Shown one piece after another: positions 11,181 to 16,735 of a stretch of DNA of 64,000 nucleotides. The notes beneath the pieces are model-generated. The model did not search any database. It was not told the origin of the DNA and saw only the letters and a list, made by a program, of their open reading frames with translations. A program made the position numbers and the translations under genes. How positions within the stretch are numbered: position 1 is the stretch's first letter; each line of letters starts with the position of its first letter. The stretch is from NCBI GenBank assembly GCA_017506865.1, contig JAFCMP010000223.1, forward strand, positions 248,001-312,000. The letters are read 5' to 3'. The DNA is from Tribonema minus. Lineage: Eukaryota; Sar; Xanthophyceae; Tribonematales; Tribonemataceae.

Positions 11181-11227
11181 CTGCTGTGCGCTGCGTATTA
11201 TCAGTGATAATACGCAGCGCACAGCAG
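11181..11227. repeat. Perfect 47-bp palindrome at the edge of the CAG tract
   Basis: Two 23-base arms (11181-11203 and 11205-11227) are exact reverse complements around a single g at 11204. The right arm ends in cagcag and overlaps the first two CAG triplets; the left arm begins ctgctg. DNA or RNA from here could fold into a stable hairpin that continues into the CAG hairpin. Confidence 0.95.
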
Positions 11228-14200: not shown

Positions 14201-16735
14201 CAGCAGCAGCAGCAGCAGCAGCAGCAGCAGCAGCAGCAGCAGCAGCAGCAGCAGCAGCAGCAGCAGCAGCAGCAGCAGCAGCAGCAGCAGCAGCAGCAGC
14301 AGCAGCAGCAGCAGCAGCAGCAGCAGCAGCAGCAGCAGCAGCAGCAGCAGCAGCAGCAGCAGCAGCAGCAGCAGCAGCAGCAGCAGCAGCAGCAGCAGCA
14401 GCAGCAGCAGCAGCAGCAGCAGCAGCAGCAGCAGCAGCAGCAGCAGCAGCAGCAGCAGCAGCAGCAGCAGCAGCAGCAGCAGCAGCAGCAGCAGCAGCAG
14501 CAGCAGCAGCAGCAGCAGCAGCAGCAGCAGCAGCAGCAGCAGCAGCAGCAGCAGCAGCAGCAGCAGCAGCAGCAGCAGCAGCAGCAGCAGCAGCAGCAGC
14601 AGCAGCAGCAGCAGCAGCAGCAGCAGCAGCAGCAGCAGCAGCAGCAGCAGCAGCAGCAGCAGCAGCAGCAGCAGCAGCAGCAGCAGCAGCAGCAGCAGCA
14701 GCAGCAGCAGCAGCAGCAGCAGCAGCAGCAGCAGCAGCAGCAGCAGCAGCAGCAGCAGCAGCAGCAGCAGCAGCAGCAGCAGCAGCAGCAGCAGCAGCAG
14801 CAGCAGCAGCAGCAGCAGCAGCAGCAGCAGCAGCAGCAGCAGCAGCAGCAGCAGCAGCAGCAGCAGCAGCAGCAGCAGCAGCAGCAGCAGCAGCAGCAGC
14901 AGCAGCAGCAGCAGCAGCAGCAGCAGCAGCAGCAGCAGCAGCAGCAGCAGCAGCAGCAGCAGCAGCAGCAGCAGCAGCAGCAGCAGCAGCAGCAGCAGCA
15001 GCAGCAGCAGCAGCAGCAGCAGCAGCAGCAGCAGCAGCAGCAGCAGCAGCAGCAGCAGCAGCAGCAGCAGCAGCAGCAGCAGCAGCAGCAGCAGCAGCAG
15101 CAGCAGCAGCAGCAGCAGCAGCAGCAGCAGCAGCAGCAGCAGCAGCAGCAGCAGCAGCAGCAGCAGCAGCAGCAGCAGCAGCAGCAGCAGCAGCAGCAGC
15201 AGCAGCAGCAGCAGCAGCAGCAGCAGCAGCAGCAGCAGCAGCAGCAGCAGCAGCAGCAGCAGCAGCAGCAGCAGCAGCAGCAGCAGCAGCAGCAGCAGCA
15301 GCAGCAGCAGCAGCAGCAGCAGCAGCAGCAGCAGCAGCAGCAGCAGCAGCAGCAGCAGCAGCAGCAGCAGCAGCAGCAGCAGCAGCAGCAGCAGCAGCAG
15401 CAGCAGCAGCAGCAGCAGCAGCAGCAGCAGCAGCAGCAGCAGCAGCAGCAGCAGCAGCAGCAGCAGCAGCAGCAGCAGCAGCAGCAGCAGCAGCAGCAGC
15501 AGCAGCAGCAGCAGCAGCAGCAGCAGCAGCAGCAGCAGCAGCAGCAGCAGCAGCAGCAGCAGCAGCAGCAGCAGCAGCAGCAGCAGCAGCAGCAGCAGCA
15601 GCAGCAGCAGCAGCAGCAGCAGCAGCAGCAGCAGCAGCAGCAGCAGCAGCAGCAGCAGCAGCAGCAGCAGCAGCAGCAGCAGCAGCAGCAGCAGCAGCAG
15701 CAGCAGCAGCAGCAGCAGCAGCAGCAGCAGCAGCAGCAGCAGCAGCAGCAGCAGCAGCAGCAGCAGCAGCAGCAGCAGCAGCAGCAGCAGCAGCAGCAGC
15801 AGCAGCAGCAGCAGCAGCAGCAGCAGCAGCAGCAGCAGCAGCAGCAGCAGCAGCAGCAGCAGCAGCAGCAGCAGCAGCAGCAGCAGCAGCAGCAGCAGCA
15901 GCAGCAGCAGCAGCAGCAGCAGCAGCAGCAGCAGCAGCAGCAGCAGCAGCAGCAGCAGCAGCAGCAGCAGCAGCAGCAGCAGCAGCAGCAGCAGCAGCAG
16001 CAGCAGCAGCAGCAGCAGCAGCAGCAGCAGCAGCAGCAGCAGCAGCAGCAGCAGCAGCAGCAGCAGCAGCAGCAGCAGCAGCAGCAGCAGCAGCAGCAGC
16101 AGCAGCAGCAGCAGCAGCAGCAGCAGCAGCAGCAGCAGCAGCAGCAGCAGCAGCAGCAGCAGCAGCAGCAGCAGCAGCAGCAGCAGCAGCAGCAGCAGCA
16201 GCAGCAGCAGCAGCAGCAGCAGCAGCAGCAGCAGCAGCAGCAGCAGCAGCAGCAGCAGCAGCAGCAGCAGCAGCAGCAGCAGCAGCAGCAGCAGCAGCAG
16301 CAGCAGCAGCAGCAGCAGCAGCAGCAGCAGCAGCAGCAGCAGCAGCAGCAGCAGCAGCAGCAGCAGCAGCAGCAGCAGCAGCAGCAGCAGCAGCAGCAGC
16401 AGCAGCAGCAGCAGCAGCAGCAGCAGCAGCAGCAGCAGCAGCAGCAGCAGCAGCAGCAGCAGCAGCAGCAGCAGCAGCAGCAGCAGCAGCAGCAGCAGCA
16501 GCAGCAGCAGCAGCAGCAGCAGCAGCAGCAGCAGCAGCAGCAGCAGCAGCAGCAGCAGCAGCAGCAGCAGCAGCAGCAGCAGCAGCAGCAGCAGCAGCAG
16601 CAGCAGCAGCAGCAGCAGCAGCAGCAGCAGCAGCAGCAGCAGCAGCAGCAGCAGCAGCAGCAGCAGCAGCAGCAGCAGCAGCAGCAGCAGCAGCAGCAGC
16701 AGCAGCAGCAGCAGCAGCAGCAGCAGCAGCAGCAG
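11222..16735 (+). repeat. Uninterrupted (CAG)n microsatellite, 1838 units
   Basis: From 11222 to 16735 the sequence is CAG repeated without any interruption I can see: 5514 bp, 1838 triplets. It begins inside the palindrome and ends at caccgcgtgg. It yields open frames of poly-Gln, poly-Ala, poly-Ser (plus) and poly-Leu, poly-Cys, poly-Ala (minus), none of which has a credible coding context. CAG/CTG tracts form slipped hairpins and expand in other eukaryotes. The length may be biological or partly an assembly or sequencing product. Confidence 0.97.

What the first reader, a model, noticed from the sequence alone, without database searches (positions are those of the whole stretch)
11222..16735. 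5.5-kb pure CAG tract of 1838 uninterrupted triplets
No interruption is visible in 5514 bases. Natural tracts usually acquire point changes; a pure tract of this size implies recent expansion, active homogenisation, or an assembly product. It lies between a reverse-transcriptase remnant and an acidic multi-exon gene, in no convincing ORF. If transcribed it would give a very long CAG or CUG hairpin RNA and could support repeat-associated translation.
Basis: seen in the sequence. Interest (0 to 1): 0.88.

Follow-up and report, generated by a model that had tools for sequence, protein, structure and literature searches.

The report
Giant CAG repeat in dead gene
A stretch of 1838 unbroken CAG triplets sits where a broken copy of a gene once had a short glutamine-coding repeat, and the same genome carries other giant CAG runs, so this unnamed organism looks like a natural case of runaway CAG expansion.

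Summary
Confirmed: window 11222-16735 is (CAG)1838 without interruption. It is the enlarged remnant of a polyglutamine exon. An inverted duplicate about 42 kb away on the same contig keeps a short, interrupted repeat, the same HRVVASHG tail and the same downstream exons. The window copy is a probable pseudogene. Against the duplicate it lacks about 1 kb upstream, including the exon's splice acceptor; in its place is a perfect fold-back palindrome, unique in the genome, that runs into the CAG tract. This looks like hairpin priming followed by a template switch into the repeat. The tract is not alone: the genome has 35 pure CAG runs of 61 or more units, mean about 617, at no fewer than 24 places, 6 of them above 1000 units as far as probes show. 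GCC and CA repeats showed nothing comparable in capped lists. Two contig ends examined lie inside CAG tracts with indel errors, so long tracts exist in reads; exact length and purity rest on an assembly consensus. Best reading: real CAG-biased runaway expansion, nucleated here by a fold-back rearrangement. Species not identified.

The parts
11222..16735 (+). pure (CAG)1838 tract
11180..11203 (+). left arm of the palindrome; homologous to the duplicate (20 of 24 bases), so ancestral sequence; homology to the duplicate ends at 11203
11205..11228 (+). right arm: exact inverted copy of the left arm (1-base centre at 11204), ending CAGCAGC inside the tract
   Evidence: core found at one place in the genome with up to 3 mismatches
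11153..16831 (+). open frame ATG + 22 codons + Q1838 + tail, 1892 aa; probably not translated
16736..16760 (+). tail of the polyQ exon (HRVVASHG), followed by GC where the duplicate has a GT splice donor
17530..17757 (+). next exon (acidic, MHNGNDDDDDEEE...), 93.4% identical to the duplicate, with an in-frame TGA near its start
   Evidence: coordinates
18090..18218 (+). next exon (DEDLHKREEE...), 93.0% identical, open
18679..19645 (+). last exon, 94.5% identical from 18711 on, with an 8-base insertion and a premature stop (QERGR*)
10401..10733 (+). relic of an upstream exon, 91.4% identical in aligned columns, with several frame-breaking gaps
9571..10335 (-). retroelement relic

Best explanation
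The tract is a runaway expansion of a short, interrupted polyglutamine-codon repeat in an exon of a duplicated gene. In this copy a broken or stalled 3' end folded back on a three-base loop (ATC-AGT-GAT), copied about 20 bases of its own strand until its end read CAGCAGC, then re-annealed to the CAG repeat about 1 kb downstream and carried on. That removed the intervening exons and splice acceptor and left the palindrome. Copying of the repeat at or after this event, in a gene copy that was losing its function, let it grow to the assembled 1838 units and displaced the old interruptions. Growth is not peculiar to this locus: CAG runs in this genome reach kilobase size at many places. Shown: the tract, the duplicate with a short repeat, the missing 1 kb, the palindrome, the other CAG runs. 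Inferred: that the duplicate shows the older state, the order of events, hairpin priming, repair-type synthesis, and that the junction helped the expansion. Not shown: true cellular length, transcription, function. I think it has no function.
For: Duplicate with (CAG)9 CGG (CAG)5 and the same exon tail and downstream exons. Homology stops at 11203, one base before the palindrome centre, and 1019 bases of the duplicate up to its CAG run have no counterpart. Palindrome core once in 158 Mb; single hairpin with 3-base loop, -30 kcal/mol. Both arms agree 24 of 24 while the left arm differs from the duplicate at 4 of 24, so the copying is younger than the divergence. Window copy disabled. 35 pure runs of 61 or more units genome-wide. 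Two contig ends inside CAG with indel errors. Precedent: short-loop hairpin foldbacks resolved by template switching in yeast, PMC7467729 (abstract and passages); template switching by short homologies around CAG repeats, PMC11161834 (abstract and passages); error-prone restarted forks through CAG, PMC8562783 (abstract).
Against: 11 of 11 other tract-start flanks tested have no palindrome beyond 6-base arms, so the fold-back is not needed for giant tracts. The small 3' hairpin sequence is not present in the duplicate, which has diverged there. No reads, no relatives, no second strain: timing and length are unverified. Consensus building may have erased interruptions. The duplicate might itself be altered (it has a 37-base local duplication beside the repeat).
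Confidence: 0.7

Rival explanations
1. Ordinary stepwise expansion by slippage and mismatch-repair processing of CAG hairpins; the fold-back junction is a separate scar that only happens to adjoin the tract.
For: Other giant tracts lack a palindrome (0 of 11 flanks); loss of interruptions is known to favour instability (PMC11855715, passages).
Against: The fold-back arm ends exactly in CAGCAGC and joins the repeat with no other sequence between, so the rearrangement used the repeat.
Confidence: 0.35
2. Assembly or consensus product: the tract exists but its length, its purity, or even the fold-back junction is made by chimeric reads or polishing.
For: Contig C15 begins and C50 ends inside CAG sequence full of one-base indels, while contig interiors are clean, so raw errors are smoothed away. 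No reads could be examined.
Against: 35 runs across many contigs; GCC and CA, which are also common, did not show kilobase runs in the capped lists; the tract lies inside a 2.1-Mb contig, flanked by sequence that matches a duplicate on both sides.
Confidence: 0.2
3. Mobile elements spread or seeded the giant CAG tracts, for example as repeat-bearing insertions that then grew.
For: C9 and C122 tracts share a start flank (49 of 50 bases by eye) but not the sequence 1 kb away, where C9 has a retroelement RNase H piece; a retroelement relic lies about 900 bases left of this tract.
Against: At this locus the duplicate shows that the repeat was already a polyQ exon; C5 also reads as polyQ in an open flank.
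Confidence: 0.1
4. A working giant polyQ protein or a functional repeat RNA.
For: The Q frame is open from ATG 11153 through the tract.
Against: The tract is open in all six frames by its nature; the copy lacks the splice acceptor, has an in-frame TGA in the next exon under the duplicate's splicing and a premature stop in the last exon.
Confidence: 0.03

Closest known systems
CAG-CTG repeat expansion (dynamic mutation), as in myotonic dystrophy type 1 and the polyQ disorders
   Same: Same motif; a short interrupted repeat becomes a long pure one; in DM1 repeats reach the thousands (PMC11855715, passages)
   Different: Here in a wild-type assembly of an unnamed organism, in a broken gene copy, with a fold-back junction, and with giant runs at 24 or more places in one genome
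Very long disease expansions of other motifs (CNBP CCTG in DM2)
   Same: Kilobase pure or nearly pure simple repeats; DM2 has 75 to over 11,000 units (PMC9462847, abstract and passages)
   Different: Other motif, single human locus, mosaic lengths measured read by read
Foldback inversions / microhomology-mediated template switching
   Same: Short-loop hairpin, inverted copy, second switch by short homology (PMC7467729, passages; PMC11161834, passages; PMC3907307, abstract)
   Different: Inverted copy of only 24 bases and a local 1-kb loss; target of the switch is the CAG repeat itself
Large microsatellite accumulations seen by FISH on chromosomes, CAG among the probes
   Same: Simple-repeat blocks of unusual size (search listing and abstract starts only)
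   Different: Those papers were not opened; here the sequence is resolved and mostly dispersed over contigs

Membership tests
CAG-CTG repeat expansion | Uninterrupted CAG run far longer than in the unexpanded counterpart | tested here: met
   1838 units against 9 and 5 in the duplicate
CAG-CTG repeat expansion | Counterpart short and interrupted | tested here: met
   CAA, CGG, TTG and GCG codons within the duplicate's repeat
CAG-CTG repeat expansion | Length instability between cells or individuals | not testable with these tools
   No reads or second strain; the C9/C122 pair has different lengths but is not shown to be allelic
Foldback inversion with template switch | Inverted copy separated by a small loop at a breakpoint | tested here: met
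   24-base arms, 1-base centre (3-base loop when folded) at the point where homology ends
Foldback inversion with template switch | Loss of sequence between the breakpoint and the switch target | tested here: met
   about 1 kb present in the duplicate only; assumes the duplicate is ancestral
Foldback inversion with template switch | Short homology at the switch | tested here: met
   CAGCAGC at the end of the inverted copy, 7 bases; weak test, since any extension of the repeat looks the same
Retroelement tail or insertion as source of the tract | Element end directly adjoining the tract at this locus | tested here: not met
   Both flanks are gene sequence shared with the duplicate; the relic ends near 10335
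Described non-coding RNA family | Rfam match in the window | tested here: not met
   0 matches at gathering thresholds

The most novel reading that the evidence does not exclude
This organism is in a natural, genome-wide, CAG-specific runaway-expansion state, perhaps through altered mismatch-repair, FAN1-type or fork-restart functions, so that polyQ exons and other CAG seeds at dozens of loci grow to kilobases, and fork breakage at them leaves fold-back scars such as this one.
Probability: 0.35. Interest if true: 0.82.

Novelty: new variant of a known kind. Interest (0 to 1): 0.62.

Why it matters
CAG expansion is studied mainly at human disease loci and in engineered models (general knowledge). 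A genome with many kilobase CAG tracts, at least one in an open polyQ-coding flank (C5, 341 units), and one beside its unexpanded duplicate and a readable template-switch scar, would let the link between fork breakage, fold-back and repeat growth be tested in nature. It also warns that assembly and gene annotation in this species are likely to fail at such tracts.

Tried and rejected
Penelope-type retroelement targeting of CAG sites was my first lead (recalled); two paper searches gave no support, and the duplicate's exon made it unnecessary here. Palindrome as a member of a repeat family: rejected, one place in the genome. Palindrome as a general feature of tract starts: rejected, 0 of 11 others. 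An Rfam family in the window: none. C9 and C122 as two alleles of one locus: not supported, different sequence 1 kb away. Naming the species: not possible; a green alga is my impression only and was not tested. Naming the gene: 0 Pfam families for two pieces of the duplicate's protein and one unnamed relative, P0001, 66% identical over 24% of the query (only 7984 candidates scored); its C-terminus reminded me of NEK kinases, which is recall and was not tested further. Prior reports of giant CAG tracts in algae: searches listed none that I recognised as such; I saw titles and abstract starts of the listed papers only, in an open-licence library.

Full report
Observation. The run at 11222-16735 is (CAG)1838 without a single change.

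The unexpanded homologue. Searching the same genome with the flanks found both again, inverted, about 42 kb away on contig C223. Two overlapping loci give a 6.6-kb stretch, C223:211251-217886. Its left part matches window 10401-11203 at 73%; its right part matches 16742-18504 at 77% and 18592-19773 at 88%, and a short match (16706-16776, 87%) begins inside the repeat. In between, the homologue has 1019 bases up to its CAG run that the window lacks. They include a splice acceptor and the first half of a polyQ exon. The exon then runs CAG CAA (CAG)9 CGG (CAG)5 TTG CAG GCG CAG CAA CAC CGG GTG GTT GCA TCA CAC GGA G and a GT donor (translation VPAIVPPLRLAGIAAAQQQQ...HRVVASHG). The window goes from pure CAG straight into CAC CGC GTG GTT GCA TCA CAT GGA G and then GC. 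If the homologue shows the older state, the tract is this exon's repeat enlarged more than a hundredfold and stripped of its interruptions.

State of the gene copy. Three downstream exons are 93.4, 93.0 and 94.5% identical to the homologue and an upstream exon 91.4% in aligned columns, against 73-77% for the longer, mostly intronic matches, so both copies seem to have been under selection for long. The window copy has an in-frame TGA near the start of the next exon, an 8-base insertion with a premature stop in the last exon, and frame-breaking gaps in the upstream exon, besides the donor change and the 1-kb loss. I read it as a young pseudogene. The homologue is open in the exons I could see; its 5' end was not available. 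Pfam names no family for two of its pieces.

The left junction. Homology to the duplicate ends at 11203, one base before the centre (11204) of a perfect palindrome with 24-base arms. Its 25-base core occurs at one place in 158 Mb with up to 3 mismatches. The left arm is shared with the duplicate at 20 of 24 bases; the right arm copies the window's own version 24 of 24 and ends CAGCAGC, which merges with the repeat. DNA folding gives one hairpin with a 3-base loop, -30 kcal/mol. The simplest history is priming on a tiny hairpin, about 20 bases of self-copying, and a second switch into the CAG repeat, losing what lay between. Yeast foldback inversions with short-loop hairpins (median loops of 4 and 3 nt in mre11 and sae2 mutants, 5.5 and 5.0 when each site is counted once), with template switching among three proposed ways of extension, are described in PMC7467729 (abstract and passages). 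Template switching by short homologies around CAG and other repeats is described in PMC11161834 (abstract and passages).

The tract has company. Whole-genome counts of exact start positions were 28,497 for 10 units, 21,268 for 27, 19,479 for 61 and 19,444 for 62. The last difference gives 35 pure runs of 61 or more units; their mean is 616.5 and their sum 21,579 units, 64.7 kb. The number of runs of at least k units averages 425 for k = 10-26 and 53 for k = 27-60, so there is a long flat tail. Runs are not loci: some are pieces of error-laden contig tips. Edge-anchored searches (60 or 61 units plus 3 edge letters, up to 2 mismatches in all) gave 26 and 27 rows, which I merged by hand to 24 places on 23 contigs; tracts whose edges fit neither anchor are missed. 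Lengths from both edges for 7 of 24: 1838 (here), 1533 (C133), 1384 (C122), 456 (C379), 341 (C5), 202 (C89), 147 (C112); C133 and C122 each had 2 of 2 interior probes in phase. Nine-base probes give lower bounds for 8 more, if nothing interrupts between probes: C468 and C225 at least 1503 units (4 of 4 probes each), C16 at least 1003 (3 of 4), C9 at least 669 (2 of 4), C541 (1 of 4), C93 (1 of 2), C71 (1 of 1) and C15:61k (1 of 1) at least 336. Four (C13, C130, C401, C517) were no longer CAG 1000 bases from their known edge (0 of 2 probes each). The other five (tips of C15, C50, C352, C545, and C48) were not sized as single tracts. So 6 of 24 exceed 1000 units on this evidence, and this tract may or may not be the longest.

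Controls. The reversed motif GAC has no run of 61. GCC has 712 positions at 20 units; the longest run among the first 100 listed is 38 units, and the unlisted 612 positions do not exclude one longer run of up to about 630 units. CA has 155 positions at 89 bases; the longest run listed whole is 161 bases, and the last one listed is cut by the list and could reach about 250. No other motifs were tested, so CAG-specific means against these three.

Is it real? C15 begins and C50 ends inside CAG tracts with frequent one-base indels. Runs on C352 and C545 also start within a few hundred bases of the contig start, but I did not read those. Reads with several kb of CAG thus seem to exist, with raw errors that are smoothed away inside contigs. 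The kind of feature is credible; the number 1838 and the absolute purity are consensus values.

Links I could not close. Eleven other start flanks (C5, C35 and C50, 75 bases; eight of 50 bases) show inverted repeats of 3-6 bases at most, so the fold-back is particular to this locus among those seen. The C35 run is smaller than the rest (at least 46 units; absent). Seven of the eight 50-base flanks end in GAG before the run; the search prefix favours this without forcing it, and I have no explanation. C9 and C122 share their start flank but not the sequence 1 kb away, where C9 has a retroelement RNase H piece, so mobile or duplicated sequence may have carried some CAG seeds.

Verdict. A known kind of event, CAG expansion, in unusual size and number, with a readable rearrangement scar at this site. 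Function is unlikely.

Noticed in passing
G000:C9:289818 and G000:C122:31146: Two giant CAG tracts with nearly the same 50-base start flank but different lengths (669-1000 and 1384 units) and different sequence 1 kb away.
   Followed up: partly
L101, L103-L108 (start flanks): 7 of 8 fetched 50-base start flanks of giant CAG runs end in GAG directly before the run.
   Followed up: no
window 4778-9381, 20840-24570, 43269-58231: Diverged repeated blocks (about 70-87% identity) that carry PPR-type genes; the ORF at 20814-21869 matches PPR_2 at 7e-14.
   Followed up: partly
window 5-611 and 4073-4679; 468-918 and 919-1369: Very recent duplications, 98.8% and 99.1% identical, with (CGC)9 runs inside the second pair.
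   Followed up: no
window 29213-29234 and 29491-29512: A run of 22 C and a run of 22 G, 256 bases apart, facing each other.
   Followed up: partly
window 42377-42403 and 45364-45390 (approximate): Two further near-perfect palindromes with 13- and 12-base arms, not beside a repeat.
   Followed up: no
window 27039-27131 and 45543-45635: Inverted 93-base repeat, 98.9% identical.
   Followed up: no
L073 (duplicate, beside its polyQ exon): The exon end and splice donor of the duplicate are repeated 37 bases further on.
   Followed up: no
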